Part shown: in pieces, positions 15,809-31,167 of the stretch
Layout of the letters: the number at the start of each line of letters is the position of its first letter
Position numbering within the stretch: the first letter of the stretch is position 1
Source of the DNA: Ideonella sp.
Lineage (GTDB): Bacteria; Pseudomonadota; Gammaproteobacteria; Burkholderiales; Burkholderiaceae_C
Direction: 5' to 3'
Assembly (NCBI GenBank): GCA_015075545.1
Contig: JABTUC010000004.1
Span: 1-64,000 of the forward strand
DNA: 64,000 bases
Notes under the pieces: model-generated
What the model saw: only the letters and a program-made list of their open reading frames with translations
Database searches by the model: none
What the model was told of the DNA's origin: nothing
Made by a program: the position numbers and the translations under genes

Positions 15809-17260
15809 ATGCAAGCCCCCCGATACCCCCAGCCGGCGCTGCACATCGACGGCCGCTGGGTCACCCGCGCCAGCGGCGGCGAGCGCGCCGTGCTCAACCC
15901 GGCCGACGGCGGCGTGCTCGCCATGCTGCCGCTGGCCGGCGCCGACGAGATCCGCGCCGCCGCCGACGCCGCCGCGCGCGGCTGGCCGGCGTGGCGCGAC
16001 ACACTCGCCAACGAGCGCTGCAACATCGTGCGCCGCGCCGCCGAGGCGATGCGCCAGCGCAGCGAGGCGATCGCGCACACGCTGACGCTCGAGCAGGGCA
16101 AGCCGCTGGCCGAGGCCAAGCGCGAGGTGGGGCTGTCGGCCGACATCATCGACTTCCAGGCCGAGGAGGCCAAGCGACTGTATGGGCGCATCGTGCCGCC
16201 GCGCGTCGCGGGCATCCTGTCGCAGTCGGTGCTGCGCCAGCCGGTGGGGCCGGTGGCCGCATTCACGCCGTGGAACTTCCCGGCCAACCTGCCGGCGCGC
16301 AAGCTCGGCAGCGCGCTGGCCGCCGGCTGCAGCGTGGTGATCAAGCCGGCCGAGGAGACCCCGGGCACCTGCATGGCGATCGTGCAGTGCTTCCTCGACG
16401 CCGGCGTGCCGCCGCTGGCGCTCAACATGGTGTGCGGCGATCCGCCGCTGGTGTCGTCGACGCTGATCGCGCACGAGGCGATCCGCAAGGCGTCGTTCAC
16501 CGGCTCGGTGGCGGTGGGCAAGCAGCTCGGCGTGCTGTGTGCCGAGCGCGTCAAGCGCTTCACCGCCGAGCTCGGCGGCCACGCGCCGGTGATCGTCTGC
16601 GCCGATGCCGACCTGCCGTTCGCGCTCAAGGCGTCGCTGGCAGCCAAGTTCCGCAACGCCGGCCAGGTGTGCGCCTCGCCGATCCGCTTCTACGTGCATC
16701 GTTCGCTGCACGACGCGTGGGCCGAGCAGTTCACGCGCGGCGCGCAGGCGCTGCGTCTGGGGCCCGGGCTCGACGCGCAGACGCAGATGGGGCCGCTGGC
16801 GCACGAGCGCCGCCTGCACGAGATGGCGCGCTTCGTCGCCGATGCGCGCGACCAGGGCGCGCGCGTGCTGTGCGGCGGCGAGCGCGTGGCGCGCCCGGGC
16901 TTCTTCTTCGCGCCCACCGTGATCGCGCAGGCGCCACCCAGCGCGCTGGTGCAGCGCCTCGAGCCGTTCGGCCCGATCGCGCTGCTCGAGCCGTTCGACA
17001 CGCTCGACGAGGCGATCGCCAAGGCCAACGCCCTGCCCTACGCGCTGGGCGCGTACGCCTTCACGCGCGACCTGCAGACCGCGCACCGGCTCGGCCACGA
17101 GATCGAAGCCGGCATGGTGGGCATCAACCACTTCGGCGTCTCGCAGCCCGAGATGCCGTTCGGCGGCTGGAAGGAAAGCGGCATCGGCCACGAGATGGGC
17201 GCCGAGGGCCTGCTGCACTACACCGAGATCAAGACCATCACCGTGGGGGTGCCGCAATGA
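15809..17260 (+). CDS. NAD(P)-dependent aldehyde dehydrogenase (succinate-semialdehyde type)
   Basis: A 483-residue aldehyde dehydrogenase. Motifs: FTPWNFPAN (cofactor site), FTGSVAVGKQ, catalytic Glu in ELGGHAPVIV and catalytic Cys in GQVCASPIRFYV; the C-terminus contains PFGGWKESGIG. It is closest in pattern to succinate-semialdehyde dehydrogenases, though the substrate is not certain. The start at 15809 is set by AGGAAG upstream; the frame is open further left without family sequence. Its TGA overlaps the ATG of a 48-codon bridging ORF. As first gene of the operon it would oxidise the aldehyde produced by one of the downstream aminotransferases. Confidence 0.9.
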   Translation: MQAPRYPQPALHIDGRWVTRASGGERAVLNPADGGVLAMLPLAGADEIRAAADAAARGWPAWRDTLANERCNIVRRAAEAMRQRSEAIAHTLTLEQGKPLAEAKREVGLSADIIDFQAEEAKRLYGRIVPPRVAGILSQSVLRQPVGPVAAFTPWNFPANLPARKLGSALAAGCSVVIKPAEETPGTCMAIVQCFLDAGVPPLALNMVCGDPPLVSSTLIAHEAIRKASFTGSVAVGKQLGVLCAERVKRFTAELGGHAPVIVCADADLPFALKASLAAKFRNAGQVCASPIRFYVHRSLHDAWAEQFTRGAQALRLGPGLDAQTQMGPLAHERRLHEMARFVADARDQGARVLCGGERVARPGFFFAPTVIAQAPPSALVQRLEPFGPIALLEPFDTLDEAIAKANALPYALGAYAFTRDLQTAHRLGHEIEAGMVGINHFGVSQPEMPFGGWKESGIGHEMGAEGLLHYTEIKTITVGVPQ

Positions 17261-17368
17261 GCCGCCGCGCGGCCGCTCCGAAGGCGGCTCAGCCCCCGCT
17301 CGGGGGGGAGGCGCGAAGCGCCAGGGGTGCACTCATGAGCCGCCGCGCGGCCGCTCCGAAGGCGGCTC
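17257..17368 (+). repeat. Direct repeat, two 34-bp copies
   Basis: The sequence beginning ATGAGCCGCCGCGCGGCCGC occurs at 17257-17290 and again, identical over 34 bases, at 17335-17368, a spacing of 78. Between the copies lies CCCCCGCTCGGGGGGGAGG and GGCGCGAAGCGCC, which can form hairpins. It occupies the space between the aldehyde dehydrogenase and the first aminotransferase. Similar sequences between operon genes in Burkholderiales are recalled, not checked. Confidence 0.85.
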
Positions 17369-17403
17369 GCACCGCAAGGCGAAGCCCGGAGGTTTCCCGA
17401 TGA
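17257..17403 (+). CDS. Bridging mini-ORF, 48 aa, coupled at both ends
   Basis: An ATG at 17257 overlaps the aldehyde dehydrogenase stop (ATGA), and the TGA at 17401-17403 overlaps the ATG of the aminotransferase at 17400 (ATGA). The peptide is basic and repeats MSRRAAAPKAA twice because it is encoded by the 34-bp direct repeat. No family is recognised. It may only serve to carry ribosomes across the repeat by translational coupling. It could equally be a chance frame, although exact fit at both ends is striking. Confidence 0.4.
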   Translation: MSRRAAAPKAAQPPLGGEARSARGALMSRRAAAPKAARTARRSPEVSR

Positions 17404-18767
17404 CCACCAGCGTCGAGCAGCTCAAGCACGACAACGCGCAGTACCTGTTCCACCCGATGGCGCATCCGGCGGCGATGCGCAAGTCGCGCCCCGACATCAT
17501 CGCGCGCGGCGAAGGCTGCTGGGTGTGGGACGTCGACGGCCACAAGATGATCGACGGCGTCGCCGGCCTGTGGAGCAGCAACCTCGGCCACAGCAACCGC
17601 AAGGTGCGCGACGCGATCGTCGCGCAGCTCGACGAGCTGCCGTTCTACAACACCTTCCGCGGCACCACGCACCCGCGCGCGATCGAGCTGTCGGCGCGCG
17701 TCGTGCAGACGATGCAGCCCGACGACGTGGGCGCGGTGCTGTTCGGCAACGGCGGCTCCGACGCGGTTGAAGGCGCGCTCAAGCTGGCGCGCCAGTACTG
17801 GAAGCTGCGCGGCCAGAGCGAGCGCACCAAGTTCATCTCGCTGAAGCAGGGCTACCACGGCGTGCACTTCGGCGGCATGAGCGTCAACGGCCTCGCCAAC
17901 ATCCGCCGCGCCTACGAGCCGCTGATGCCCGGCTGCTTCCACGTCGATTCGCCCTGGCTCTATCACAACGCCTACACGCAGGACCCGGAGGAACTCGGCC
18001 GCGTCTGCGCCGGCCTGCTCGAGCGCGAGATCCAGTTCCAGGGCGCCGACACGGTGGCCGCGTTCATCGCCGAGCCGGTGCAGGGCTCGGGCGGCGTGAT
18101 CGTGCCGCCGCCCAACTTCTGGCCGCTGGTGCGCGAGGTGTGCAACCGCAACGACGTGCTGCTGATCGCCGACGAGGTGGTCACCGGCTTCGGTCGCACC
18201 GGCGCCTGGTTCGGCACCCGGCTGTGGGGCGTGAAGGCCGACCTGTGGTGCCTGGCCAAGGGCATCAGCTCGGGCTACGTGCCGCTGGGCGCCACCGCGC
18301 TCGGCCGCAAGGTGGCCGACGCGTTCTTCGCCGACGACGGTTCGCTCGGCACGGTGTCGCACGGCTACACCTACAGCGGCCACCCGGTGGCCGCCGCCGC
18401 GGCGCTGGCCACGCTCGACGAGCTCGAGCGGCTCGACGTGGTGGGCAACGCGGCGCGCGTCGGCGCGCATTTCCAGGCGCGCATGCGCGAGTTCGTTCAG
18501 CGCTACGGCATCGTCGGCGACGTGCGCGGCGTGGGCCTGATGTGCGCCCTCGAGATGGTGGCCGACAAGGCCAACCGCAAGCCGGTGCCGCGCAGCAGCG
18601 ACCTGCCGCTGCGGCTGGCGCGCGAGGCGTACCGGCGCGGCGCGATGGTGCGCGTGTCGGGGCCCAACATGATCCTGTCGCCGCCGCTGGTGATCACGCG
18701 CGAGGAGGTCGACCATCTGGTGGACATCCTGCACGCGACCTTCGACGCGCTGGACCGCGCGCCGTGA
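17400..18767 (+). CDS. Class-III PLP aminotransferase (beta-alanine/omega-amino acid type)
   Basis: A 455-residue class-III aminotransferase of the omega-amino acid:pyruvate type. PLP features: GNGGSDAVEGALKLAR, the Asp in LLIADEVVTGFGRTG and the Schiff-base Lys in CLAKGISSGYVPLGA. The length is normal. A GGAGG site lies before the ATG. The last base pairs overlap the GTG start of the next gene (GTGA). Between an aldehyde dehydrogenase and a second aminotransferase, the likely role is conversion of a primary amine or omega-amino acid to an aldehyde. The exact substrate is not deducible. Confidence 0.9.
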   Translation: MTTSVEQLKHDNAQYLFHPMAHPAAMRKSRPDIIARGEGCWVWDVDGHKMIDGVAGLWSSNLGHSNRKVRDAIVAQLDELPFYNTFRGTTHPRAIELSARVVQTMQPDDVGAVLFGNGGSDAVEGALKLARQYWKLRGQSERTKFISLKQGYHGVHFGGMSVNGLANIRRAYEPLMPGCFHVDSPWLYHNAYTQDPEELGRVCAGLLEREIQFQGADTVAAFIAEPVQGSGGVIVPPPNFWPLVREVCNRNDVLLIADEVVTGFGRTGAWFGTRLWGVKADLWCLAKGISSGYVPLGATALGRKVADAFFADDGSLGTVSHGYTYSGHPVAAAAALATLDELERLDVVGNAARVGAHFQARMREFVQRYGIVGDVRGVGLMCALEMVADKANRKPVPRSSDLPLRLAREAYRRGAMVRVSGPNMILSPPLVITREEVDHLVDILHATFDALDRAP

Positions 18768-20017
18768 CGGTGTCGCCCACCGTCCTGCTGATCGGCACGC
18801 TCGACACCAAGGGCGACGAGGCCGCATTCCTGCGCGACACCTTGCTCGCGCAAGAGGCGCGGCCGCTGCTGATGGACGTGGGCGTGCTGAGGCAAGGCGC
18901 GATCGCGCCCGACTTCTCCAGCCACGAAGTGGCCGCCGCCGCCGGCATGACGCTGCAGCAGGTGATCGACAGCGGCGACGAGAACAGCGCGATGCAGGCG
19001 ATGGCGCGCGGCGCCACGCTGCTGGCCACGCAACTGCAGGCGCAGCGGCGCATCGACGGCGTGCTGGCGTTCGGCGGCACGATGGGCACCGACCTCGCGC
19101 TCGACGTGACGCAGGCGCTGCCGCTGGGGTTCCCGAAGGTGCTGCTGTCGACCATCGCGCACTCGCCGCTGCTGTCGCCGCAGCGCATCGCGCCCGACCT
19201 CGTCACCGTGCTGTGGGCCGGCGGCCTGCACGGCCTGAACGGCCTGTGCCGATCGACCTTGGCGCAGGCGGCCGGCGCGGTGGTGGGTGCGTGCCGCGCG
19301 GCGGTGCCGCCGCGCGCGGATCGGCCGCTGGTGGGCATGACCTCGCTCGGCTCGAGCGCGCTGGCGTACATGAAGGCGCTGCAGCCCGAGCTCGAGCGCC
19401 GCGGCTACGAGCTGGCGGTGTTCCACACCACCGGCATGGGCGGGCGCGCCTTCGAGGCGCTGGCCGCGCAGCGGCGTTTCGCGGCGGTGATGGACTTCAG
19501 CCTGCAGGAGCTGGCCAACCACGTCGGCGACTCGTGCGTCAGCTCGGGGCCCGAGCGCCTGTGCGGCGCCGGCAGCGCCGGCGTGCCGCAGATCGTCGCA
19601 CCCGGCGCGACCGATATGGTCGACTACCCCGCCTGGCAGAGCGCACCCGCGCGCTTCGCCGAGCGGCCGATGCACGCCCACAACCGGCTGATCGCGTCGG
19701 TCGGCGTCGACGCGGAGCAGCGCCGCGCGGTCGCGCGCGCCATCTGCGAGCGGCTGGCGCGCGCGCGCGGCCCTACCGCACTGATCGTGCCGACGCAGGG
19801 CATCGAGGGCTGGGACCGGCCCGGGCAGCCGCTGCACGACCCGCCGGCGCTGGCCGCGCTGGTCGACGAACTGCTGCGCCGCGCCCCCGACAACGTCGAG
19901 CTGACGATGCTCGACGCCCACATCAACGACCGCGCGTTCGTCGACGCCGCGCTGGCGGTGTTCGACCGCTGGGTCGCCGCGGGGCTCATCGTGCGCGGCG
20001 CCAAGGAGGCGAAATGA
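18764..20017 (+). CDS. UPF0261 family protein (Tm-1-like ATP-binding domain)
   Basis: A 417-residue protein of UPF0261, related to the N-terminal ATP-binding domain of the tomato Tm-1 virus-resistance protein. The start VLLIGTLDTKGDEAAFLRD is diagnostic, with GVLAFGGTMGTDLALDVTQALPLG (quoted in part: FGGTMGTDLALDV), PKVLLSTIAHSP and MTSLGSSALAYM. The start is GTG 18764 within the previous stop (GTGA), or GTG 18770. UPF0261 genes are often next to a TIM-barrel phosphoenolpyruvate-hydrolase-like partner; none is seen here. It overlaps the HAD gene by ATGA. Enzymatic function unknown. Confidence 0.85.
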   Translation: MTVSPTVLLIGTLDTKGDEAAFLRDTLLAQEARPLLMDVGVLRQGAIAPDFSSHEVAAAAGMTLQQVIDSGDENSAMQAMARGATLLATQLQAQRRIDGVLAFGGTMGTDLALDVTQALPLGFPKVLLSTIAHSPLLSPQRIAPDLVTVLWAGGLHGLNGLCRSTLAQAAGAVVGACRAAVPPRADRPLVGMTSLGSSALAYMKALQPELERRGYELAVFHTTGMGGRAFEALAAQRRFAAVMDFSLQELANHVGDSCVSSGPERLCGAGSAGVPQIVAPGATDMVDYPAWQSAPARFAERPMHAHNRLIASVGVDAEQRRAVARAICERLARARGPTALIVPTQGIEGWDRPGQPLHDPPALAALVDELLRRAPDNVELTMLDAHINDRAFVDAALAVFDRWVAAGLIVRGAKEAK

Positions 20018-20688
20018 AACCCGGCGCGCTGGTGCTCGACTTCGGCGGCGTCGTCACGCGCACGCTGTTCGAGACGCATGCGCTGACCGAGCGCCGGCTC
20101 GGCCTGGCCCCGGGCACGCTCACCTGGCGCGGGCCGTTCGACCCGGCCAGCGACCCGCTGTGGCGCGACATGCAGGCCGACAAGATCAGTGAGCGCGACT
20201 ACTGGGTGGTGCGCACGCGCGAGGTCGGCGCGCTGGTGGGCGAGCAGTGGGACCGCATGGACACCTTCGTGCAGCGCGCCCGCGGCGACGACATGGACAA
20301 GACGATCCGGCCCGAGGCGGTGTCGGCGCTCGAGCGCGCCAAGGCCGCCGGCCACAAGCTCGCGGTGCTGTCCAACGAGCTCGACCTGTTCTACGGCACC
20401 GAGCTGCGCCACCGCCTGCCGGTGATGAAACTGCTCGACGTGGTGGTCGACGCCACCTACACCGGCATCCTCAAGCCCGACGCGCGCGCCTACGCGCTGT
20501 GCGCGCAGCAACTCGGCCTGCCGCCGGCCGCCTGCGTGTTCGTCGACGACCAGCTGCGCAACGTCGAAGGCGCGCAGCGCGCGGGCATGCAGGCGGTGCA
20601 CCTCGACGTGGCGCAGCCGGCCGCGGCGTTCGCACGAGCGCTGGCGCTGCTGGGCGTGCGCGACGATGCGGGAGCGCAGCCACGATGA
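20014..20688 (+). CDS. HAD-family hydrolase
   Basis: A 224-residue haloacid dehalogenase-like hydrolase. Motif I is VLDFGGVV with the nucleophile Asp (residue 9) and Gly at the usual second Asp position, as in the DFGGV subgroup. Motif II is VLSNE, motif III ILKPDARAY and motif IV VFVDDQLRNVEGAQ. The alpha-helical cap lies between about residues 20 and 100. ATG overlaps the UPF0261 stop and its own stop overlaps the next start (both ATGA). Likely a phosphatase or related hydrolase acting on an intermediate of the pathway; substrate unknown. Confidence 0.85.
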   Translation: MKPGALVLDFGGVVTRTLFETHALTERRLGLAPGTLTWRGPFDPASDPLWRDMQADKISERDYWVVRTREVGALVGEQWDRMDTFVQRARGDDMDKTIRPEAVSALERAKAAGHKLAVLSNELDLFYGTELRHRLPVMKLLDVVVDATYTGILKPDARAYALCAQQLGLPPAACVFVDDQLRNVEGAQRAGMQAVHLDVAQPAAAFARALALLGVRDDAGAQPR

Positions 20689-22064
20689 CCGCGCCGACAC
20701 CGCAGCGCGTGGCGCAGCTCATGCAGGCCGAGCAGGCGCGCTTCGAGCGCACGCATGCGCGCTCGGGCGAGCTATTCCAACAAGGCAAGCAGCATTGGCT
20801 CTACGGCGCGCCGTCGCACTGGATGCGGCGCTGGATGGGCGGCTGGCCGCTCACCATCGCCGACCGGCCGCACGACTACGGCATCCGTCTCGCCGACGTC
20901 GACGGCAACGAGCTGGTCGACTTCTGCCTCGGCGACAGCGGCGGCCTGTGCGGCCACGGCCACCCCGCGATCGTGCAAGCGATGGCGCACCAGGCGGGCA
21001 TCGGCACCTCGCTGATGCTGCCCGGCGGCGACGCCGCCTGGGTCGGCGCCGAGCTGCAGCGCCGCTTCGGCCTGTCGTACTGGAACCTCACCACCTCGGC
21101 CAGCGACGCCAACCGCGCCTGCATCCGCCTGGCGCGCATGATCACCGAGCGGCCGCGCGTGCTGGTGTTTTCGGGCGCCTACCACGGCAGCGTCGAGGAG
21201 GCGCACGTCGAGCTGGCGCCCGACGGCAGCGTGCGGCTGCGCAACGGCATCCACCCCAACGCGTTTCCGCACGACCGCCTGTCGCGCGTGGTCGAGTTCA
21301 ACGACACCGCGGCGTTGGAGCAGGCGCTGCGCGCCGGTGACGTGGCCTGCGTGCTGGCCGAGCCGGCGATGACCAACTACGGCATGGTCGAGCCGCAGCC
21401 GGGCTTTCACGACGCGCTGCGCCGCCTGACGCGCGAGACCGGCACCGTGCTGGTGATCGACGAGACGCACACCATCTCCAGCGGCCCCGGTGGCTACACG
21501 CGCGCGCACGGCCTGCAGCCCGACATGTTCGTGCTCGGCAAGGCGATTGCCGGCGGCATCCCGGCAGCGGTGTTCGGCCTCTCGCAGGCGATGGCCGAGC
21601 GCGTTTGGCAGGCGCTGCCGCCGTTGCCGCCCACCGCGCGGCAGAGCGCGCACGCCGGCTTCGGCGGCACGCTGGCCGGCAACGCGCTCACCGTGGCGGT
21701 GATGCGCGCGGTGCTGTCGCAGGTGCTGACCGAGCCGGCCTTTGCGCGCATGCTCGAGCTGGCCGCGCGCATGCAGCGCGGCGTCGACGACACCATCGCG
21801 CACCACCGCCTGCCGTGGCGCACGCTGCGCATCGGCGCGCGCATGGAAACGCTGTTCGCTCCCGAGGCGCCGCGCAACGCCGCCGACGTGCGGCGCACGC
21901 GCGACCACGCGCTGGAGGCGCTGCTGCACCTCTACCTGCTCAACCGTGGCGTGCTGATCACGCCGTTCCACAACATGACGCTGTGCTGCCCCGGCACCAC
22001 GGCGGCCGACGTGGACTGCCACGTCGCCGCGTTCGCCGAATTCGCGGCGCAGGTGAGCGCATGA
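20685..22064 (+). CDS. Class-III aminotransferase (glutamate-1-semialdehyde aminomutase-like)
   Basis: A 459-residue class-III PLP enzyme of the glutamate-1-semialdehyde aminotransferase group. PLP features: TSASDANRACIRLAR, FSGAYHGSVEEAHVEL, the Asp in LVIDETHTISSGPGG and Lys in VLGKAIAGGIPAAVFG, with FGGTLAGNAL near the C-terminus. It differs clearly from the first aminotransferase of the operon, so it is not a recent duplicate. It is coupled to the HAD gene upstream and to a 20-codon mini-ORF downstream. In this setting it is more likely catabolic than part of haem synthesis. Confidence 0.88.
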   Translation: MTAPTPQRVAQLMQAEQARFERTHARSGELFQQGKQHWLYGAPSHWMRRWMGGWPLTIADRPHDYGIRLADVDGNELVDFCLGDSGGLCGHGHPAIVQAMAHQAGIGTSLMLPGGDAAWVGAELQRRFGLSYWNLTTSASDANRACIRLARMITERPRVLVFSGAYHGSVEEAHVELAPDGSVRLRNGIHPNAFPHDRLSRVVEFNDTAALEQALRAGDVACVLAEPAMTNYGMVEPQPGFHDALRRLTRETGTVLVIDETHTISSGPGGYTRAHGLQPDMFVLGKAIAGGIPAAVFGLSQAMAERVWQALPPLPPTARQSAHAGFGGTLAGNALTVAVMRAVLSQVLTEPAFARMLELAARMQRGVDDTIAHHRLPWRTLRIGARMETLFAPEAPRNAADVRRTRDHALEALLHLYLLNRGVLITPFHNMTLCCPGTTAADVDCHVAAFAEFAAQVSA

Positions 22065-22123
22065 TGCAGCGGGCCGCGCTCGAACAGCGCACCGTGGTGC
22101 GGCGCGCGCGGCAGATGCCATGA
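22061..22123 (+). CDS. Bridging mini-ORF, 20 aa, coupled at both ends
   Basis: ATG ATG at 22061 overlaps the TGA of the aminotransferase, and the TGA at 22121-22123 overlaps the ATG of the following dehydrogenase at 22120. The peptide MMQRAALEQRTVVRRARQMP has no known family. It fills exactly the gap between two otherwise uncoupled genes, as the 48-codon ORF at 17257 does in the same operon. A role in translational coupling is inferred; it might be a remnant or a chance frame. Confidence 0.35.
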   Translation: MMQRAALEQRTVVRRARQMP

Positions 22124-22929
22124 GCGCGCCCGCGCAAGCCCCCTCGCCGTTCGGCCTCGCCGGCAAGGTGGCGCTGGTCACCGGCGGCGGGCGCGGCATC
22201 GGCGCGGCGATCGCACGGGTGTTCGCTCGTGCAGGGGCGCAGGTCTTGATCGCCAACCGCACCACTGCCGCCGGCGAGGCGGTGGCCGCGGCGCTGCGCG
22301 CCGAAGGCATCGCGGCGCAGGCCGTCGGCTGCGACGTCGCGCAGCGCGCCGACATCGATCGCGCGGTGGCGGCCGCGGTGCAGGCGTTCGGCGCGCTCGA
22401 CATCGTGGTGCACAACGCGGCGGTCAACCACTGGGCGCGCATCGAGGCGGCGACCGACGCCGACCTCGAGCACACGCTGGCGGTCAACCTGCAGGCGTGC
22501 TTCCGGCTCGCGCAAGCGGCGCTGCCGCACTGGCGGGCGCGCCGCGGCGGGCGCCTGCTGGTCACCTCGTCGGTCACCGGGCCGCGCGTGGCGATGCCCG
22601 GCGGCGCGGCCTACGCGGCCAGCAAGGCCGGGGTCAACGGCTTCATCCGCAGCGCGGCGCTCGAGCTGGCGCGCGATCGCGTCACGGTCAACGGCGTCGA
22701 GCCGGGCTTCATCGCCAAGCAAGGCGGCTCGCTGTTGTCGGACCCCGAGCGCGCCGCGCGCATCGCGCGCCACATTCCGCTGGGCGAACTGGGTCGCCCC
22801 GAAGACGTGGCGCACGCGATGTGCTTCCTCGCCAGCGACGCGGCGCGCTACGTCACCGGGCAGACGATCGTCGTCGACGGCGGCTCGACGCTGCCCGAGA
22901 GCCCGTTCTTCGCCGAGGACGCACCGTGA
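22120..22929 (+). CDS. Short-chain dehydrogenase/reductase
   Basis: A 269-residue classical SDR. Cofactor motif TGGGRGIG at about residues 21-28, NAAV, catalytic Ser in VTSSVTG and the YAASK catalytic Tyr/Lys pair, with C-terminal VTGQTIVVDGG. NADP or NAD preference is unclear. The end overlaps the GTG of a second SDR gene. The pairing of two SDRs suggests successive oxidoreductions of hydroxyl or keto groups on the pathway substrate. Confidence 0.88.
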   Translation: MSAPAQAPSPFGLAGKVALVTGGGRGIGAAIARVFARAGAQVLIANRTTAAGEAVAAALRAEGIAAQAVGCDVAQRADIDRAVAAAVQAFGALDIVVHNAAVNHWARIEAATDADLEHTLAVNLQACFRLAQAALPHWRARRGGRLLVTSSVTGPRVAMPGGAAYAASKAGVNGFIRSAALELARDRVTVNGVEPGFIAKQGGSLLSDPERAARIARHIPLGELGRPEDVAHAMCFLASDAARYVTGQTIVVDGGSTLPESPFFAEDAP

Positions 22930-23696
22930 AGCGCCTGCACGACCGCGTGGCCATCGTCACCGGCGCCGCCAGCGGCATCGGCGCGGCGGTGGTGCAGCGC
23001 TTCGTGCAAGAAGGCGCCTGGGTGCTGGCCTGCGGCGTGCCCGCGCCGCAGGACGTCGGCGATGCGGGACTCGCGCTGGCGTGCGACGTCACCGACGAGG
23101 CGCAGGTGCAAGCGGCGGTGCAGGCGGCGCTGGCGCGCCGCGGGCAGATCGACATCCTGGTCAACGCCGCCGGCGTGGTGGCCGCCGATGCCGCGGCGCA
23201 GATCGACGACGCCACCTGGCAGCGCCTGCACGACGTCAACCTGGGCGGCACGATGCGCACGATGCGCTCGGTGCTGCCGGGCATGCTGGCGCAGCGCCGC
23301 GGCAGCATCGTCAACATCGCGTCGGTGGCGGCCTTCAACGCCGGCGCCGACGCCGCCAGCTACGCGTCGAGCAAGGCCGCGGTGGTGGCGCTGACGCGCT
23401 CGGCCGCGCAGGCCTACGGCGCGCAGGGCGTGCGCGCCAACGCGCTGTGCCCGGGCTGGGTCGACACGCCGATGGCGGCGCGCGAGATGGCCGAGCTCGC
23501 GCAGGCCTGGGGCGTCGACGAGGCCGAGGCGCGGCGGCGCACCGAGGCGCGCATCGCGCTCGGGCGCATGGCACGGCCCGACGAGATCGCCGCGGTGTGT
23601 GCGTTCCTCGCCAGCGACGACGCCTCGTTCGTCACCGGGGCAGCGCTGGTGGCCGACGGTGGCATGCGGCTGCCGGCGGCGGCGCGCGGGGTTTGA
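22926..23696 (+). CDS. Short-chain dehydrogenase/reductase
   Basis: A 256-residue classical SDR with TGAASGIG, NAAG, Ser in IASVAAF and YASSK, and C-terminal FVTGAALVADGGM. GTG at 22926 within the previous TGA (GTGA) is the natural start, giving MKRLHDRVAIVTG. It differs widely from the preceding SDR. It is the last gene of the unbroken chain of overlapping frames; an 87-base gap follows before the next gene. Confidence 0.87.
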   Translation: MKRLHDRVAIVTGAASGIGAAVVQRFVQEGAWVLACGVPAPQDVGDAGLALACDVTDEAQVQAAVQAALARRGQIDILVNAAGVVAADAAAQIDDATWQRLHDVNLGGTMRTMRSVLPGMLAQRRGSIVNIASVAAFNAGADAASYASSKAAVVALTRSAAQAYGAQGVRANALCPGWVDTPMAAREMAELAQAWGVDEAEARRRTEARIALGRMARPDEIAAVCAFLASDDASFVTGAALVADGGMRLPAAARGV

Positions 23697-23783: not shown

Positions 23784-24899
23784 ATGAAACCGACGGCCTT
23801 CTACTTCGACGAGCGAACCCTGTGGCACGTGCCGGGCGGACTGCACGCGCTGTATCTGCCGGTGGGCGGCTGGATCCAGCCGATGGCCGGCAGCGGCATG
23901 GCCGAGTCGCCCGATTCGAAACGGCGCATCAAGTCGCTGTTCGACGCCTCGGGGCTGAGCCAGCGGCTCGACCTGCGCAGCGCGCCACCGGCGAGCGAAG
24001 AGGACTTGCGGCGCGTCCACACAGCGGGCTATCTCGCCGAGTTCAAGCGCCTGAGCGACGCCGGCGGCGGCGAGCTCGGCGACACCGCGCCGTTCGGCCG
24101 CGGCAGCTACGAGATCGCGCAGGTGTCGACGGGTCTGGCGATCGCGGCGCTCGACAGCGTGCTGCGCGGCGAGCACGGCAACGCGTTCGCGATCACGCGC
24201 CCGCCCGGGCACCACTGCCTGCCCGATCGCGGCATGGGCTTCTGCCTGTTCAACAACATCGCGGTCGCCATCGAAACCGCCAAGGCGCGCCACCGCATCG
24301 AGCGCATCGCGGTGATCGACTGGGACGTGCACCACGGCAACGGCACGCAGCAGATCTTCTACGCGCGCAACGACGTGCTGACGCTGTCGCTGCACCAATG
24401 GGGTTGCTTTCCGCCGGGCTACTCGGGCGCCGAGGATCGCGGCGAAGGCAAGGGCGTCGGCTGCAACGTCAACATTCCGCTGCTGCCCGGCGGCGGGCAC
24501 GAGTCGTACCGCTACGCGTTCGAGCGCATCGTGGTGCCGGTGATCGACCGCTTCCGGCCCGAGCTGATCGTGGTCGCCAGCGGCCTCGACGCCAACGGCG
24601 TCGACCCGCTGGCGCGCATGCAGTTGCACCCGGAATCGTTTCGCATGATGTCACGCGAGGTGCTGCAACTGGCTGCGCACCACGCGCAGGGCCGGCTCGC
24701 GGTGGTGCACGAGGGCGGCTACTCGGAGGTCTGCGTGCCGTTCTGCGCGCTCGCGGTGGTCGAGGCGCTGTGCGGTCACCGTACCGAAGTGCCCGATCCG
24801 TTCAGCGAGTTCTTCGGCCTGCAGCAGCCGCCGGAGCGCTTCGATGCGCTGCAGCGCGAGCTGATCGACGAGATGGCGGCGCTGCATGGGCTGCGCTGA
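23784..24899 (+). CDS. Class II histone deacetylase-like amidohydrolase
   Basis: A 371-residue zinc amidohydrolase of the arginase/deacetylase fold, the length of bacterial class II HDAC-like amidohydrolases. Active-site parts are present: [16 protein letters not shown] with the tandem His, [11 protein letters not shown] with zinc ligands, Asp in [14 protein letters not shown] and the catalytic Tyr in HEGGYSE. Relatives deacetylate acetylpolyamines or other N-acyl amines. Here it sits between aminotransferase/dehydrogenase genes and an amidase plus importer, so it likely releases an amine from an imported N-acyl compound. The substrate is inferred, not shown. Confidence 0.9.
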
Positions 24900-24935
24900 G
24901 CAGCGCACCGGCCGCGCCAACCCGATGGAGGACAC

Positions 24936-26384
24936 ATGAACCTCTCCGAATACGCCGAACACGATGCGCTGGGCCTGGCCGAACTCGTGCGCCGGCGCGA
25001 CGTTGCGCCGCGCGAACTCGCCGCGCTCGCGCTGGCCGGCTGCGAGCGCGTCAATCCGAAGCTCAACGCGGTGATCGGCAAGGTCTCCGACTGGGAAGCG
25101 CAGTTCGACGCCCAGCCGGCCGGCGGTGCCTTCCACGGCGTGCCGTTCCTGATCAAGGACCTCGTGCTGCACGCCAAGGGCGTCGCCTGCGACATGGGCA
25201 GCCGGCTGGTGCACGGGCGCTTCGTCGCGCCCGGCGACACCGACCTGATGAGCCGCTTTCGCGCCAGCGGCGTCATGACGCTGGGGCGCACCAACACGCC
25301 GGAGTTCGGCTTCGCACCGGTGGCCGAACCCGTGCTGTACGGCCCGACCCGCAACCCCTGGGACACCACGCGCACCAGCGGCGGATCGAGCGGCGGCGCG
25401 GCCGCCGCGGTGGCCGCGGGCATCGTGCCGATCGCGCACGCCAACGACGGCGGCGGCTCGATCCGCATCCCGGCGTCGTGCTGCGGCCTGGTCGGGCTCA
25501 AGCCCACGCGCGGGCGCACGCCGGTCGGCCCCGTCGCCGGCGACCCGCTGCACGGCATGGGCATCGAGCACGTCGTCACGCGCAGCGTGCGCGACTGCGC
25601 GGCGATGCTCGACGCGATCGAAGGCCCGGCACCGGGCGACTACTTCGCGATCGCGCGGCCGCAGCGCTCCTACCTGCAGGAGGTGGCGGCGCCGCCGCGG
25701 CAACTGCGCATCGCGCTGGCGACGCGCGGCCTGCGCGGCGCCGTGATCGACCCGCAGTGCGAGCAGGCGGCGCGCGCCGCGGCCAGACTGTGCGAGTCGC
25801 TCGGCCACATCGTCGAGGAGGCCTCGCCCCAGTTCGACGAGGAGGCGTTCCACGCGGCCAATCTCGTCTACTGGTGTTCGTTCCTCGGCGGCGCGCTCGA
25901 GGCCTGCGCCGCGATGTTCGATCGCAAGCTCTCGCCGGCGCTGGTCGAGACGACGATCTGGGCGAGCTACCAGCACGCCCTCACGCTCACCGCGCTCGAC
26001 CTGGAACGCGCCGATGCAACGAAGAACATGGTGTGCCGCACGGTCGGCGCGTTCTTCACGCAATACGACCTGCTGCTGACGCCGACGATGGCGTCGCCGC
26101 CGGTGGCCGTCGGCACGATCGACGCCAACGCGCCAGGGGCCACCGCGAAGGGCTGGTACGACAGCGTATTCGCCTTCGCCCCGTTCACCGCGCTGTTCAA
26201 CATGACGGGCCAGCCCGCGATCAGCCTGCCGCTGGCCAGCAGCAGCGACGGGCTGCCGATCGGCGTGCAGTTCGTCGCGCCGTACGGCGACGAGGCGACG
26301 TTGTTCGCACTGGCCGGGCAGCTCGAGCGCGAGCGGCCGTGGCGGGGGCGACGACCGCCGGTGCATGTGGCGAACGCGGGCTGA
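24936..26384 (+). CDS. Amidase signature family hydrolase
   Basis: A 482-residue amidase-signature enzyme. The Ser-cisSer-Lys triad is visible: Lys in [10 protein letters not shown], Ser in [16 protein letters not shown] and nucleophile Ser in [28 protein letters not shown] precedes the ATG. The C-terminus ([26 protein letters not shown]) is complete. It would hydrolyse a carboxamide to acid plus amine or ammonia. It directly precedes the transporter genes, so its substrate may be what the importer brings in. Confidence 0.9.
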
Positions 26385-26451
26385 GGCAAGCACCCGGGTT
26401 CAACCGCATTTCCGTAGTGCCGTAGTGCAACACCACCAAGGAGACCGTGAG

Positions 26452-27636
26452 ATGAGCATGCGAACCAGAACCAAGTGGCTGTCGGCAGCGGTGGCGATCG
26501 GGCTGGCCGCCCTGTGCGGCCCGGCCCTCGCGAAACCGACCTGCGCCAACGGCGTGATCAAGGTCGGCGCCGTGTCGACGATCACCGGCCCGGCCGACTT
26601 CAGCGAGGTGCCCAAGGCGACCAAGGCCGAGTTCGACCAGATCAACGCCAAGGGCGGCATCGACGGCTGCAAGATCGACTACACGATCGCCGACGACAAG
26701 GCCGACCCGCAGGTGGCCGCGCAGGCGGCGCGCGACCTGATCGACAACAAGGGCGTGGTGGCGATGGTCGGCTCGGCGAGCCTGCTGGACTGCCAGGTCA
26801 ACGCGCAGACCTACCAGCGCAAGAACGTGCTGTCGGTGCAGGGGCTCGGGGTCGACTCGGCGTGCTTCAATTCGCCGAGCGTCTCGCCGGTCAACGTCGG
26901 CCCGTTCACGCTGTCGACCGCGATGGCCTACTACGCGTCGCAGACGCTGAAGGTGAAGAACCTGTGCGCGTTCTTCATCATCCTCGGCGGCACGCAGGAG
27001 GCGTACAAGAAGGCGCTCACCGACTGGGAGAAGATCACCGGCAAGAAGCTGCACATGCTCGACCTCACGGTGCCGATCCAGGGCGACCTGACGCCGTACC
27101 TGATCAAGGCGCGCGACGGCGGCTGCGATGCGGTGGTCAACAACGGCGTCGAGCCCAACGTCGTGCAGTGGGTGAAGACCGCCGATGCGCAGAAGATCAC
27201 CGGCATCAACTGGCTGTTCCTCGCGCCGGCCTACACGGTGCAGGTGGCCAAGGCGCTCGCCGAGTCGAACCAGCCGATCTACGCGGGCACCGAATGGGAG
27301 CCCTACACCGAGGCGGGTTCGCCCGCCAACAAGGACTGGATCGCGACCATGAAGGCCGCCGACCGGCCGCTGACCGCGTTCTCGCAGGGCGGGTATCTGG
27401 CGGCGCAGGTGTTCGTCGACGTGATCAAGAGCATCAACGGGCCGGTCACGCACGACAGCGTCGCCAAGGCCCTGCGCGGCATGCGCAAGGCGGTCAAGTA
27501 TCCGCTGGCCGGGTCGCCCTGGATCTTCGGCGACGCCAAGGCCCATACGCCGATGCGCTCGACCAAGATCATGAAGCTCGACCACGGCACGTGGAAGGTC
27601 GAGACACCGCAGTTCGTGACGCTGCCGCAGCCGTGA
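26452..27636 (+). CDS. ABC transporter periplasmic binding protein (Liv type)
   Basis: A 394-residue type I periplasmic binding protein. The signal peptide is MSMRTRTKWLSAAVAIGLAA ending at GPALA-KPTC. The mature N-terminus IKVGAVSTITGPADF is typical of branched-chain amino acid/amide binding proteins. Several Cys residues (in the CANG, DGCK, LDCQ and SACF segments) may form disulfides. AAGGAGACC precedes the start. It lies four bases before the permease gene. The ligand cannot be read from sequence; the family binds amino acids, amides and urea-like solutes. Confidence 0.9.
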   Translation: MSMRTRTKWLSAAVAIGLAALCGPALAKPTCANGVIKVGAVSTITGPADFSEVPKATKAEFDQINAKGGIDGCKIDYTIADDKADPQVAAQAARDLIDNKGVVAMVGSASLLDCQVNAQTYQRKNVLSVQGLGVDSACFNSPSVSPVNVGPFTLSTAMAYYASQTLKVKNLCAFFIILGGTQEAYKKALTDWEKITGKKLHMLDLTVPIQGDLTPYLIKARDGGCDAVVNNGVEPNVVQWVKTADAQKITGINWLFLAPAYTVQVAKALAESNQPIYAGTEWEPYTEAGSPANKDWIATMKAADRPLTAFSQGGYLAAQVFVDVIKSINGPVTHDSVAKALRGMRKAVKYPLAGSPWIFGDAKAHTPMRSTKIMKLDHGTWKVETPQFVTLPQP

Positions 27637-27639
27637 TGC

Positions 27640-28509
27640 ATGGGTGAAGCCCTGACCGCCGCCGTCGCCGGGCTCTCGGCGGGTGGCACCTACGCGCTGC
27701 TCGGCGTCTGCGCGGTGTTCACCTACCGTTTGGTGGCGGTGGTCAACTTCACCGGCGCTGCGATCGGCACCACCGGCACCTTCGTGATGGTGGTGCTGAA
27801 CCAGGCCGGCGTGCCGCTGGCGCTGGCCGTCGTCGCCGGGCTCGCGGCGGGCACGCTGACCGGCGTGGCGATCGGTTTCGTCACCACCACCTGGTTCGCC
27901 GAATCCGACGCGTCGAGCAAGGCGGCGGTCACCGTGGCGCTGTTCATCGGCATCGTCGCGGTCGGGTTGCGGCTGACCGGCGGCCAGCATCCGCACCCGT
28001 TCCCCGATCTGGTTCCGGGCTCGGCAGCGCGGGTCAGCGGCGTCGAACTCACCAACGCAGCCGTGGTGGCGATCGCGCTCGCGCTGGTGTTCACGCTGCT
28101 GGCCGACCTGTTCCTGCGCTATACGCGCACCGGCCTGCATTTGCGCGCGCTGTCGGAGCGGCCGATGGCGGCCGAGCTGGTGGGCGTGCGGGTGCGGCGG
28201 CTGTCGCTGCTGGTGTGGGGCGTCACCGGCGCCTTCACCACGCTGGCGCTGATGATCGTGGCGCCGCAGCGCTCGCCCGATTTCATGTCGCTGTCGCTGC
28301 TGGTCGTGCCGGCGCTCGCGGCGGCCTTGATCGGCTTCTTTCGCAACTTCTGGGCCACGCTCGCCGGCGGCCTGCTGATCGGCGTGCTCGAAGGCGTGGC
28401 CAGCCTGCTGGGCGGTACCAACCAGTACCGCGGTGCGCTGCCGTTCGTCGTGATTCTCGCGGTGCTGCTGTGGGCACAGCGCGGTGCGCGCTGGGACGAG
28501 GCGCGCTGA
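27640..28509 (+). CDS. Branched-chain amino acid-type ABC permease (LivH)
   Basis: A 289-residue LivH-family permease with about eight membrane helices. Family features are the N-terminal AAVAGLSAGGTYALLGVCAV and the cytoplasmic EAA-like loop with RALSERPMAAELVGVRVRRL (MAAELVGV). The ATG at 27640 lies three bases after the binding-protein stop. With the LivM-LivG fusion and LivF it completes an importer. Nothing appears truncated. Confidence 0.88.
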   Translation: MGEALTAAVAGLSAGGTYALLGVCAVFTYRLVAVVNFTGAAIGTTGTFVMVVLNQAGVPLALAVVAGLAAGTLTGVAIGFVTTTWFAESDASSKAAVTVALFIGIVAVGLRLTGGQHPHPFPDLVPGSAARVSGVELTNAAVVAIALALVFTLLADLFLRYTRTGLHLRALSERPMAAELVGVRVRRLSLLVWGVTGAFTTLALMIVAPQRSPDFMSLSLLVVPALAAALIGFFRNFWATLAGGLLIGVLEGVASLLGGTNQYRGALPFVVILAVLLWAQRGARWDEAR

Positions 28510-28522
28510 CGCTGCGATTTCG

Positions 28523-30397
28523 ATGCCGAGCCTGCCCAAGAACCCCGCGGCGCGCGCCGCGCTGACCGTCGTCGTGGGGGCTGTCGTCGCCGGCGTCGTC
28601 GTTGCCGGGGTGCTGCCGGCGTACTGGGTGTTCCTCGCGACCTCGCTGCTGGTGTCGGCGATCGCGCTGCAGAGCCTGGGCCTCGTCACCGGCCGCGCCG
28701 GCATGATCGCGCTGTGCCAGATGTCGTTCGCGGGCGTCGGCGCGTGGGTGGTCGGCGCGCTCAATGTCGCGCAGTTTCCGGGCGGGCTCGCGGTGTGGGT
28801 GTTGGCGGGCGGCATCGCCGCGGTGCCGTTCGGCGTCGCGATCGGGCTGCCCGCGCTGCGGCTGCGTGGCATCAACCTGGCGATCGTCACGCTGGGTTTC
28901 GCGGCCGCGTTCGACTCGGTGCTGTCGACGATCTCGTTTCCCGGGCAGACGAAGTTCCTCGCGGTGCCCAGGCCCGAGGCGTTCGACAGCGATGCCGGCT
29001 ATTTCGTGTTCGTGCTGATCTGGTACACGGCGATCGCGGTCGCGCTCGAGCTCATCGCCCGCTCGCGCCTCGGGGCCGGCTGGCTTGCGCTGCGGCACTC
29101 CGAGCGCGCCGCGGCTGCGCACGGCATCAGCATTCCGCGCGCCAAGCTGTCGGCGTTCGCGATCAGCGCGTTCGTCGCCGGGATATCCGGCGGTCTGCTG
29201 GCCGGCTTTCTGGGCACGCTGGTGTCGGACAACTTCAACATGATCCAGTCGATGGTGCTGTTCGCCGTGGCCACGATGGCCGGCGCGCAGTTCGCCGAGG
29301 GCGCGCTGATCGGCGGCCTGCTGATCGTGATCTTCCCCGAGATCCTGCGCCGCCTCGGCCTCGCGCAGGACATCGGCAACGTGGTCTTCGCGATCGGCGC
29401 GACGCAGGCGTTGAGCACCGGCGAGAGCATGAGCGAAGCGTTGCGCCGCAACCTGCGCAAGCTGGTGTCGCGCCGTGCGCGCGCGAGCGGCGCACGGGCG
29501 ACGACACTGGCGGCGCCGCGCAGCCCGCGCCCTGATGCTGCCGCCGCCCCGGCGCGCGCTGCCGGGCGGAGCGCGGAGCCGGCGCCGGTCACCGGTCAGG
29601 CCGCGGCGCCGGCTGGCGTTGCCGATCGCAGCAGCGAGCCGGCGCTCGCGATCGACAAGCTCACCGTGCGCTACGGCAGCGTGGTCGCGCTCAGCGACGT
29701 GCAACTGCGCGTGCCGGCGCGATCGGTGGTCGGGCTGATCGGGCCCAACGGCGCGGGCAAGTCGACGTTCATCGATGCGGTGGCCGGTTTTCTGGCGTCG
29801 TACGGCGGCGAGATCCGTCTCGGCGGTCGCCCGCTCGACGGCGCGCCGGCGCATCTTCGCGCGCGTGCCGGCGTGCGGCGCACCTGGCAGACGACGCGCA
29901 TTGCGCCCGAGCTGACCGTCGGCGCCTACGTCCGCCTGGCCGCCGGGCCGCTGCCCGACGACGAACTGCGCGACCTGCTGCGCTGGCTCGACTGCCCCGA
30001 TGCCGGCCAGCCGATCGCCAGCGTCGATGCCGGCACGCGCCGCCTGCTCGACGTGGCGGGCGTGGTCGCGGCGCGGCCCGCGGTCGCACTGCTCGACGAG
30101 CCCGCTGCCGGGCAGTCGTACGACACCACGATGCGGCTCGGCGAGCGCATTGCCGAGATCCCCGAGCGCTTCGGCACCACCGTGCTGCTGGTCGAGCACG
30201 ACATGGACCTGGTGCGCGCCGCGTGCAGCGCGGTGACCGTGCTCGATTTCGGCTGCGTGATCGCCAGCGGGGCGACCGCGCTGGTGCTCGACAGCGCGGC
30301 GGTGCGCAAGGCCTACCTCGGCGTCGGCGATCACGCCGACGGCAGCCCTTCGGATGCGCAGGCAACCGCGGGCGCCGCCGCAGGAGCGCCCTCGTGA
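28523..30397 (+). CDS. LivM-LivG fusion: ABC permease plus ATPase
   Basis: A 624-residue fusion. Residues 1-310 are a LivM permease (LVTGRAGMIALCQMSFAGVG, LRHSERAAAAHGI), then an Ala/Pro/Arg-rich linker of about 70 residues, then a LivG ATPase with Walker A GLIGPNGAGKST, Q-loop RRTWQTTR, Walker B ALLDEPAAG and H-loop VEHDMDL. Odd point: the ABC signature, normally LSYGQ-like, reads VDAGT (SVDAGTRRLLDVAG), so ATP-site function may depend on LivF. Some Burkholderiales have such fusions. ATG 28523 is chosen by family alignment; the stop overlaps the livF GTG. Confidence 0.88.
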   Translation: MPSLPKNPAARAALTVVVGAVVAGVVVAGVLPAYWVFLATSLLVSAIALQSLGLVTGRAGMIALCQMSFAGVGAWVVGALNVAQFPGGLAVWVLAGGIAAVPFGVAIGLPALRLRGINLAIVTLGFAAAFDSVLSTISFPGQTKFLAVPRPEAFDSDAGYFVFVLIWYTAIAVALELIARSRLGAGWLALRHSERAAAAHGISIPRAKLSAFAISAFVAGISGGLLAGFLGTLVSDNFNMIQSMVLFAVATMAGAQFAEGALIGGLLIVIFPEILRRLGLAQDIGNVVFAIGATQALSTGESMSEALRRNLRKLVSRRARASGARATTLAAPRSPRPDAAAAPARAAGRSAEPAPVTGQAAAPAGVADRSSEPALAIDKLTVRYGSVVALSDVQLRVPARSVVGLIGPNGAGKSTFIDAVAGFLASYGGEIRLGGRPLDGAPAHLRARAGVRRTWQTTRIAPELTVGAYVRLAAGPLPDDELRDLLRWLDCPDAGQPIASVDAGTRRLLDVAGVVAARPAVALLDEPAAGQSYDTTMRLGERIAEIPERFGTTVLLVEHDMDLVRAACSAVTVLDFGCVIASGATALVLDSAAVRKAYLGVGDHADGSPSDAQATAGAAAGAPS

Positions 30398-31167
30398 CGG
30401 GCACCGCCGCGCCGATCCAACGCGCGAAGGCGCCCGACGAGAGTGACGCGGCGGCGCCGGGCAGCGCCGCCCGCCTCGTCGTCGAGAAGCTGTCGGTGAA
30501 CCGCGCGCACCTTCCGGTCGTGCGCGAGGTCGACCTGGTCGTCGACCGCGGCAGCATCAGCGTGCTTCTGGGCTCCAACGGCGCGGGCAAGACCACCTTT
30601 CTCGAAGGCTTGTCGGGGGTGATCCCGGTCGCCGGAGGCCGTGTCGCGCTCGACGGGCTCGAGCTGCAGAAGGCGCGTCCGGGTGTGCGCGCACGCGCCG
30701 GCATCGCCCACGTGGAGCAGGGGCGCACGGTGTTCCGCCATCTGACGACCGACGAGAACCTGCGGGTCGGGGCCGACGTTGCCTCGTCGCTCGACTGGGT
30801 CTACGAGCTGTTTCCCGAACTGCTGCAGCGACGCCACGTGCGCGCGGGCCTGTTGTCGGGAGGCGAACAGCAGATGCTGGTGATCGCGCGGGCCCTGTTG
30901 TGCAAGCCCAAGGTGCTGCTGGTCGACGAGATGTCGGCAGGGTTGGCGCCGATCGTCGTGACCAAGCTGATGAAGACCGTGCGCGAGCTTGCCGATCGCG
31001 GCCTCGCGGTGCTGCTGGTCGAGCAGTTCGCGGCGCTCGCGCTGTCGATCGGCGATCGCGCCTACGTGCTGCGCCGCGGGCGCATGGTGTTCGCCGGGGG
31101 TTGCGCCGAGCTGCGTGGCGACAACCAACGGCTACACCAGCTCTACCTGGGGACGGGAGCCGGCTGA
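30394..31167 (+). CDS. ABC transporter ATPase (LivF)
   Basis: A 257-residue LivF ATPase. Walker A GSNGAGKTT, Q-loop VEQGRTVFRHLT, intact signature LSGGEQQMLVIARALL, Walker B VLLVDEMSAGLAP (Met replaces the usual Pro) and switch VLLVEQFAALAL. A low-complexity N-terminal stretch of about 30 residues precedes the domain. GTG at 30394 overlaps the LivMG stop (GTGA). It ends the operon; about 80 bases later the convergent oxygenase gene ends, and GCCGGT-CA-ACCGGC in that gap may form a short hairpin. Confidence 0.88.
   Translation: MTGTAAPIQRAKAPDESDAAAPGSAARLVVEKLSVNRAHLPVVREVDLVVDRGSISVLLGSNGAGKTTFLEGLSGVIPVAGGRVALDGLELQKARPGVRARAGIAHVEQGRTVFRHLTTDENLRVGADVASSLDWVYELFPELLQRRHVRAGLLSGGEQQMLVIARALLCKPKVLLVDEMSAGLAPIVVTKLMKTVRELADRGLAVLLVEQFAALALSIGDRAYVLRRGRMVFAGGCAELRGDNQRLHQLYLGTGAG

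What the first reader, a model, noticed from the sequence alone, without database searches (positions are those of the whole stretch)
15809..31167. Uncharacterised 15-kb uptake and catabolism operon for an amide- or acetyl-linked amine
One strand carries an aldehyde dehydrogenase, two unrelated class-III aminotransferases, a UPF0261 protein, a HAD hydrolase, two SDRs, a class II deacetylase-like amidohydrolase, an amidase and a full Liv-type importer, facing a divergent AraC-type regulator. The families are recognised; the pathway is not. A plausible logic is import of an N-acyl or amide amine, hydrolysis by amidase or deacetylase, transamination and oxidation of the aldehyde. This combination matches no catabolic pathway I can name.
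Basis: partly seen in the sequence, partly recalled or inferred. Interest (0 to 1): 0.75.

Follow-up and report, generated by a model that had tools for sequence, protein, structure and literature searches.

The report
Probable aromatic-amine uptake and breakdown operon
A bacterium carries a 13-gene operon whose relatives in other bacteria sit beside genes for breaking down tyramine-like aromatic amines, so it probably imports such amines, perhaps in acylated form, and converts them to aryl-acetic acids for food.

Summary
In detail: 13 co-directional genes (15809-31167) face a divergent AraC-type gene, and every family named is present. The set is not unique. A core of ALDH, aminotransferase AT1, UPF0261 and HAD recurs in beta- and alphaproteobacteria, and all the enzyme classes recur together in a Variovorax replicon and an Ideonella-labelled MAG.

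The clue is where the parts sit elsewhere. The core lies beside homoprotocatechuate (hpa) genes in 13 of 80 named loci, all alphaproteobacterial. The AT2-SDR1 pair lies beside hpaBC on a Pseudomonas plasmid. The class II deacetylase lies beside hpa genes in Pantoea and Agrobacterium, and beside monoamine-regulon genes in Klebsiella. Rhizobial versions add a kinase and a phospholyase-family enzyme; Shinella adds a DOPA-decarboxylase relative.

I propose uptake and catabolism of phenylethylamine-type amines (tyramine, dopamine, octopamine class), possibly N-acylated, to arylacetate. No substrate was shown. The roles of UPF0261, HAD, AT2 and the SDRs are guesses. Against this, 17 of 80 named loci carry malonate-type genes after HAD, and no hpaB, nor hpaD above cut-off, was found in this 85%-complete genome; paaA and hmgA were.

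The parts
14640..15638 (-). AraC-type regulator, divergent from the operon
   Evidence: HTH_18 E 6e-23; best NCBIfam model EutR, 111.7 bits against a cut-off of 319, so not a member
15639..15808 (.). 170-base region between the divergent starts, expected promoter region
   Evidence: coordinates only; no promoter was tested
15809..17260 (+). aldehyde dehydrogenase; closest model SSADH, below its cut-off
17400..18767 (+). class III aminotransferase AT1 (PRK07481 subfamily)
   Evidence: 694.6 bits, cut-off 575; closest solved chain 5lh9, omega-transaminase
18764..20017 (+). UPF0261 / Tm-1-like protein (NF002676)
   Evidence: 571.1 bits, cut-off 556; solved relatives 9mpy and Tm-1 3wry
20014..20688 (+). 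HAD-IA hydrolase
20685..22064 (+). class III aminotransferase AT2 (PRK07046 subfamily, GSAM-like)
   Evidence: 615.5 bits, cut-off 425; closest solved chain 5ykr
22120..22929 (+). SDR1; orthologue of the SDR beside AT2 on a P. aeruginosa plasmid
   Evidence: 57% identity, inside the SDR1 clade
22926..23696 (+). SDR2; groups with MoaE of the Klebsiella monoamine region
   Evidence: 40% identity, clade support 0.919
23784..24899 (+). class II deacetylase-like amidohydrolase (HdaH type)
   Evidence: PA3774-type chains 5li3/5g0x, E 4e-166; catalytic motifs at residues 139, 179, 266, 309
24936..26384 (+). amidase-signature hydrolase
   Evidence: closest solved chain 3a2p, 6-aminohexanoate cyclic dimer hydrolase
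26452..27636 (+). substrate-binding protein of a Liv-type importer
   Evidence: Peripla_BP_6; only remote solved relatives
27640..28509 (+). LivH-type permease
28523..30397 (+). fused LivM permease and LivG ATPase
   Evidence: BPD_transp_2 and ABC_tran in one ORF
30394..31167 (+). LivF-type ATPase, last gene of the operon

Best explanation
An operon for uptake and catabolism of aromatic monoamines of the phenylethylamine type (tyramine, dopamine, octopamine or synephrine class), probably including N-acylated forms. Proposed steps, all inferred: the Liv-type importer brings the compound in; the HdaH-type amidohydrolase and the amidase remove an acyl group; AT1 transaminates the free amine to an arylacetaldehyde; the ALDH oxidises it to the arylacetate, which enters the phenylacetate or homogentisate pathway encoded elsewhere in this genome. 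AT2-SDR1-SDR2 is proposed to handle a modified, for example beta-hydroxylated, amine, in the place that a kinase plus phospholyase-family enzyme holds in rhizobial versions. UPF0261 and HAD are constant partners of unknown chemistry. Shown here: gene content, layout, synteny and homology. Not shown: any substrate or reaction.
For: (1) Core beside hpa genes in 13 of 80 named loci (13 of the 33 alphaproteobacterial ones) with varying gene orders, and in 4 of the 10 plasmid loci counted. (2) Core beside homogentisate genes in S. fredii NXT3 and an HmgA match in L171. (3) Rhizobial and some betaproteobacterial clusters add an APH kinase and an aminotransferase-family protein closest to phospholyases 5g4i and 6tor (both present in 22 of 80); Shinella clusters add a decarboxylase closest to DOPA decarboxylase 7xin, within the hpa operon in L188. 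(4) AT2 and SDR1 have 55% and 57% identical counterparts beside moaF and hpaBC on a P. aeruginosa plasmid. (5) The deacetylase is 60% identical to one beside moaR, moaE, moaF and atsBA in a Klebsiella record, and relatives lie beside hpa genes in Pantoea and Agrobacterium. (6) The permease of AT2-SDR1 clusters in Ramlibacter and Curvibacter is 60% identical to the permease of that Klebsiella locus. (7) This genome has PaaA and HmgA.
Against: No hpa gene near any of the 47 non-alphaproteobacterial named loci. In this 85%-complete genome HpaB was not found and HpaD only at 24 bits or less, far below cut-off. HpaD over cut-off in 0 of 32 family genomes, core-bearing or not. 17 of 80 named loci carry malonate-type genes after HAD (8 with malonyl-CoA decarboxylase, 9 with the AMP-binding ligase only), and 15 of those 17 a P450 and a glutamine-synthetase-like gene, which does not follow from an aromatic amine. 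PaaA in 13 of 14 core-bearing against 12 of 18 other family genomes is not significant (p 0.10). The window's own importer has close relatives near the core in only 5 of 80 loci and the deacetylase in 2 of 80. LivK gives no ligand hint. Synteny shows association, not reaction. A published deletion of PA4089, which I recall (not shown here) to be the chromosomal counterpart of the Pseudomonas SDR, did not affect the carbon sources tested (passages of PMC6558427).
Confidence: 0.5

Rival explanations
1. The core acts on a small aliphatic amine such as beta-alanine, 3-aminopropanol or 1,3-diaminopropane: AT1 makes malonate semialdehyde or a similar aldehyde, the ALDH makes malonate, and malonate is activated and decarboxylated.
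For: Malonate-type genes follow HAD in 17 of 80 named loci; the ALDH is closest to the SSADH model; AT1 belongs to the family of omega-transaminases.
Against: The 17 loci are Burkholderiales by title (one is titled Akkermansia), i.e. a narrow group; aromatic ring-cleavage genes accompany the core in several alphaproteobacterial genera and in S. fredii; AT2, SDR1 and the deacetylase have independent aromatic neighbours.
Confidence: 0.2
2. A general or other amine operon (amino alcohols, amino amides, xenobiotic amides) whose aromatic neighbours reflect clustering of catabolic genes on plasmids rather than shared substrate.
For: Modules are exchanged between loci; other hydrolases and importers take the same place (Amidohydro_3, TctA/TctC, APC permease); the nearest regulator model is EutR, below cut-off.
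Against: Three separate parts of the operon find arylacetate or monoamine genes as neighbours in unrelated genomes, and gene orders differ.
Confidence: 0.2
3. Acetylated polyamine catabolism: the deacetylase releases putrescine or cadaverine, which AT1, AT2 and the ALDH break down.
For: The deacetylase superfamily includes acetylpolyamine amidohydrolases (one search lists 9gkz), and polyamine transaminases are among the solved relatives of AT1.
Against: The deacetylase matches PA3774-type HdaH at E 4e-166 and the acetylpolyamine amidohydrolase 9gkz only at 5e-35; PA3774 does not use acetylpolyamines (passages of PMC8556138).
Confidence: 0.05

Closest known systems
Klebsiella aerogenes monoamine-regulon region (moaR, moaE, moaF, atsBA, feaB-like ALDH, hdaH; locus L199)
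   Same: 60% identical deacetylase; MoaE groups with SDR2; 60% identical permease shared with sister clusters of the window operon
   Different: no AT1, AT2, UPF0261 or Liv importer matched in the 21 kb read; the window operon has no arylsulfatase or MoaF
Rhizobial UPF0261-HAD-aminotransferase-phospholyase-kinase clusters beside hpa genes (e.g. L181, L184, L188)
   Same: core genes, AT1 counterpart 54% identical to the Shinella protein, UPF0261 56-58%; Liv relatives at 62-70% in L154, L156, L159 and L161
   Different: kinase and phospholyase-family enzyme instead of AT2-SDR1-SDR2; IclR instead of AraC in many; hpa genes adjacent
Pseudomonas AT2-SDR pair beside moaF and hpaBC (L189)
   Same: AT2 55% and SDR1 57% identical
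   Different: no core, no importer, no deacetylase in the 19 kb read
HdaH / PA3774 / KpHdaH, PrpH, DmhA deacylases (cluster 1b of PMC11532494, passages read)
   Same: sequence family and catalytic motifs
   Different: the passages read treat them as lysine deacetylases or pesticide amidases; here the gene lies in an amine operon

Membership tests
Core amine cluster (ALDH, AT1/PRK07481, UPF0261 NF002676, HAD) | the four genes adjacent and co-directional | tested here: met
   all of UPF0261, AT1 and HAD in 68 of 80 named loci
hpa-linked aromatic-amine clusters | hpa genes adjacent or in the genome | tested here: not met
   HpaB no match, HpaD none over cut-off; genome 85% complete, so absence is not proven
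Kinase plus phospholyase route | APH kinase and phospholyase-family aminotransferase in the cluster or genome | tested here: not met
   neither among the operon's families; best genome match to the phospholyase-type protein 37%; kinase not searched genome-wide
Monoamine regulon (Klebsiella) | moaR, moaE, moaF, atsBA with an amine oxidase | tested here: not met
   the operon families include no arylsulfatase, MoaF or amine oxidase; only SDR2 groups with MoaE
HdaH-type class II deacylase | zinc-site and catalytic residues (His143, His144, Asn186, Tyr313 in PA3774 numbering) | tested here: met
   motifs at the same residue numbers (PA3774 numbers from passages of PMC8556138)
HdaH-type class II deacylase | amide hydrolysis activity | not testable with these tools
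   needs enzyme assay
Acetylpolyamine amidohydrolase | closest sequence similarity to that group | tested here: not met
   9gkz E 5e-35 against 4e-166 for PA3774-type
Liv/HAAT-type ABC importer | binding protein, two permease domains, two ATPase domains | tested here: met
   one permease and one ATPase are fused

The most novel reading that the evidence does not exclude
This operon type defines an undescribed bacterial route for N-acylated aromatic monoamines, in which HdaH-type bacterial 'histone deacetylases' are really N-acyl-monoamine deacylases, UPF0261 is an unrecognised enzyme of amine breakdown, and AT2-SDR1-SDR2 replaces a kinase-phospholyase step for beta-hydroxylated amines such as octopamine.
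Probability: 0.25. Interest if true: 0.65.

Novelty: new variant of a known kind. Interest (0 to 1): 0.45.

Why it matters
If right, it gives a concrete candidate role to three protein groups of unclear function: UPF0261/Tm-1-like proteins, bacterial class II HdaH deacylases, and the PRK07481 and PRK07046 aminotransferases, and makes each testable with a short list of amines. It would also supply gene candidates for octopamine- and synephrine-type catabolism (the enzyme names octopamine dehydratase and synephrine dehydratase are recalled; whether genes are known for them was not established here).

Tried and rejected
AT2 as a marker found mostly paralogues without the operon. In the class sample 7 of 321 genomes matched at E <= 1e-60, one of them this genome; the six others show no operon. 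In the order sample 30 of 399 matched at E <= 1e-100, one of them this genome; 18 of the relatives were read and one (G107) already, none with the operon; the other 10 were not read. The UPF0261 marker worked (16 of 299, this genome included; 14 of the 15 relatives read).

Literature. UPF0261 + aminotransferase + operon: 1 paper, a Brucella virulence database announcement, listing only. 'Tm-1-like ATP-binding': 0; with aminotransferase or phosphotransferase: 1,291 holding two terms, 20 listed, none with the Tm-1 term. Phospholyase + octopamine: 0. Octopamine + homoprotocatechuate: 0. Synephrine/octopamine degradation: 9 listed, none on such a cluster by title or abstract start. Monoamine regulon terms: 12 of 52 listed, none on such a cluster by title or abstract start. 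PA4088/PA4089: 9 listed, passages of two read. PA3774: 3 listed, passages of one read. Dimethoate/propanil hydrolase: 2 listed, passages of one read. Within these searches I found no description of the cluster; most subscription papers are not in the library, including older work on biogenic amines in P. aeruginosa that I only recall.

Mutual exclusion of AT2 and the phospholyase-type protein: 0 of 80 with both, 16 and 22 singly, chance of no overlap 0.003; but 0.013 within the 33 alphaproteobacterial and 0.33 within the 47 other loci, and relatedness is ignored. The hpa association has no formal background model; the 18 AT2-paralogue loci L080-L097 show no hpa match of 50% or more, and chance proximity in a multi-megabase genome would be about 1% (my estimate, no call).

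Rows dropped: alignment A2 left out L055 (in-frame stop) and L065 (33% identical). In the SDR tree seven unnamed loci that I took as duplicates of named ones were left out (L069 not verified as such), and some genes appear twice. For some searches, 18 of the 20 listed non-matching genomes served as controls; G724 and G725 (65% and 89% complete) were left out.

Full report
What is there. The window is contig C8:1-64000 of a 3.69 Mb, 13-contig, 85%-complete genome. A genome counted in the same genus, G808, gave locus L066 on a contig of 1,060,489 bases, the same length as the contig of a MAG titled Ideonella sp. H5_PRO6 (L103). The finding is confirmed: thirteen + strand genes from 15809 to 31167, five 4-base overlaps and seven gaps of 3 to 139 bases, all the named families, and a divergent AraC-type gene at 14640-15638. 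The operon stops before an opposite-strand 2OG-Fe(II) oxygenase (31250-32104) and a DnaE-type polymerase (32990-36274).

Sub-families. AT1 passes the cut-off of NCBIfam PRK07481, AT2 that of PRK07046 and UPF0261 that of NF002676; the ALDH and the amidase pass none of the models shown, and the deacetylase matched none. Nearest solved chains: omega-transaminase 5lh9 for AT1; 'probable aminotransferase' 5ykr for AT2; PA3774-type HdaH for the deacetylase, then KpHdaH 9glb (names in PMC11532494 passages); 6-aminohexanoate cyclic dimer hydrolase 3a2p for the amidase; 9mpy and Tm-1 for UPF0261.

Conservation. In 299 genomes of the same family 16, this one included, carry this UPF0261 at E <= 1e-60. 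Of 14 relatives' neighbourhoods read, 14 have HAD, 13 AT1 and 14 an ALDH. In those 80, AT1 type occurs in 73, HAD in 70, both in 68, an ALDH of either type in 68, AT2 in 16 (15 with SDR1), and the phospholyase-type aminotransferase in 22, each with the kinase. 57 of the 80 loci are at least 20 kb long, so absences in the rest may be contig ends. Variovorax paradoxus VAI-C (L178) and L103 carry all the enzyme classes. Their importers differ: the Variovorax Liv genes match at only 33-39% and L103 shows only a 32% LivMG match and SsuA-like genes. The window's own importer type recurs near the core in 5 of 80 loci, all alphaproteobacterial. So the operon is a conserved system with exchangeable parts.

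Links to aromatic amines. (a) Core with hpa genes: 13 of 80 named loci, all among the 33 alphaproteobacterial ones, and 4 of the 10 plasmid loci counted (L181, L184, L186, L188). Gene orders differ. (b) Core with homogentisate genes: S. fredii NXT3, beside a protein with DAO and GCV_T domains, one with Oxidored_FMN and pyridine-nucleotide domains, and a flavin monooxygenase; L171 has an HmgA match and a 56% match to the second of these. L152 carries relatives of the first two with the kinase, the phospholyase-type protein and UPF0261, which would suit an N-methylated amine (inference). (c) Shinella: a decarboxylase nearest to DOPA decarboxylase 7xin, within the hpa operon in L188; a relative also in L144. 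(d) AT2-SDR1: counterparts next to moaF and hpaBC on a P. aeruginosa plasmid, the SDR falling inside the SDR1 clade. I recall that this is the PA4088-PA4092 arrangement; that was not checked. (e) Deacetylase: of 11 plasmid records matched at E <= 1e-100, one is the Variovorax cluster, one the Klebsiella monoamine region and two lie beside hpa genes (Pantoea, Agrobacterium). Ruegeria and Martelella have it directly after a Liv-type importer, Novosphingobium after an amidohydrolase, Leisingera beside an ABC importer and a ring-hydroxylating dioxygenase. Three are unannotated; of these L198 has ALDH and HAD matches. (f) The permease inside AT2-SDR1 clusters of Ramlibacter and Curvibacter is 60% identical to the permease of the Klebsiella locus. 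(g) MoaE orthologues lie in L125 and L159 with the core and hpa genes, and the MoaE group joins SDR2 (support 0.919, which also takes in two other SDRs).

Results against. No hpa gene is near any of the 47 other named loci. In this genome HpaB was not found and HpaD not above cut-off; PaaA and HmgA are present. PaaA is in 13 of 14 core-bearing and 12 of 18 other family genomes, p 0.10. HpaD over cut-off is in 0 of 32. In 17 of 80 named loci malonate-type genes follow HAD: malonyl-CoA decarboxylase in 8, only the AMP-binding ligase in 9; 15 of the 17 also have a P450 and a glutamine-synthetase-like gene (the name malonyl-CoA synthetase for the ligase is my inference). L177, an alphaproteobacterium, shares the P450 and the synthetase. 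This keeps an aliphatic-amine rival alive. A published PA4089 deletion had no effect on the carbon sources tested there (passages of PMC6558427).

How it most likely works. Import by the Liv system; deacylation by the HdaH-type hydrolase or the amidase; transamination by AT1; oxidation by the ALDH; ring degradation elsewhere. Of these only the genes are shown. AT2-SDR1-SDR2 and the kinase-phospholyase pair never occur together in the 80 loci at the thresholds used, which suggests alternative solutions to one chemical problem. A beta-hydroxyl next to the amine, as in octopamine, would suit both a kinase-phospholyase pair and a dehydrogenase-aminotransferase pair. That is inference, and the exclusion is weak once lineage is considered.

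Deacetylase. PA3774 does not act on acetylpolyamines and its physiological substrate is unsettled (passages of PMC8556138). A 2024 survey places KpHdaH, PrpH and DmhA in cluster 1b and describes the latter two as small-molecule amidohydrolases (passages of PMC11532494). The terms 'genomic context' and 'gene cluster' do not occur in its main text. The neighbourhoods found here suggest N-acyl monoamines as natural substrates for at least some members.

Verdict. A real, conserved, uncharacterised catabolic operon of a known general kind, most likely for aromatic monoamines (confidence 0.5), with three poorly understood protein groups whose roles become testable.

Noticed in passing
window 17246-17290 and 17324-17368: A 45-base direct repeat (91% identical, 78 bases apart) with GC-rich palindromes fills much of the only large gap in the operon, between ALDH and AT1.
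   Followed up: partly
window 28523-30397: LivM permease and LivG ATPase are fused in one ORF; a record of Agrobacterium leguminum also annotates a fused ATP-binding/permease protein.
   Followed up: no
L110 4223-16812 and similar Burkholderiales loci: In Limnohabitans-type loci the core is followed by malonate-type genes and, in most, lies downstream of a P450 and a glutamine-synthetase-like gene; unexplained by the aromatic-amine reading.
   Followed up: partly
L134: A MAG contig titled Akkermansia muciniphila carries the Limnohabitans-type core and neighbours, so the bin or its title is probably wrong.
   Followed up: no
L152 and L185: DAO/GCV_T and Oxidored_FMN proteins, as in N-demethylation of methylamines, accompany UPF0261 in two alphaproteobacteria.
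   Followed up: partly
window 4010-6817 (-): Met-zincin-type protein with DUF4953 and DUF5117 domains, unrelated to the operon.
   Followed up: no
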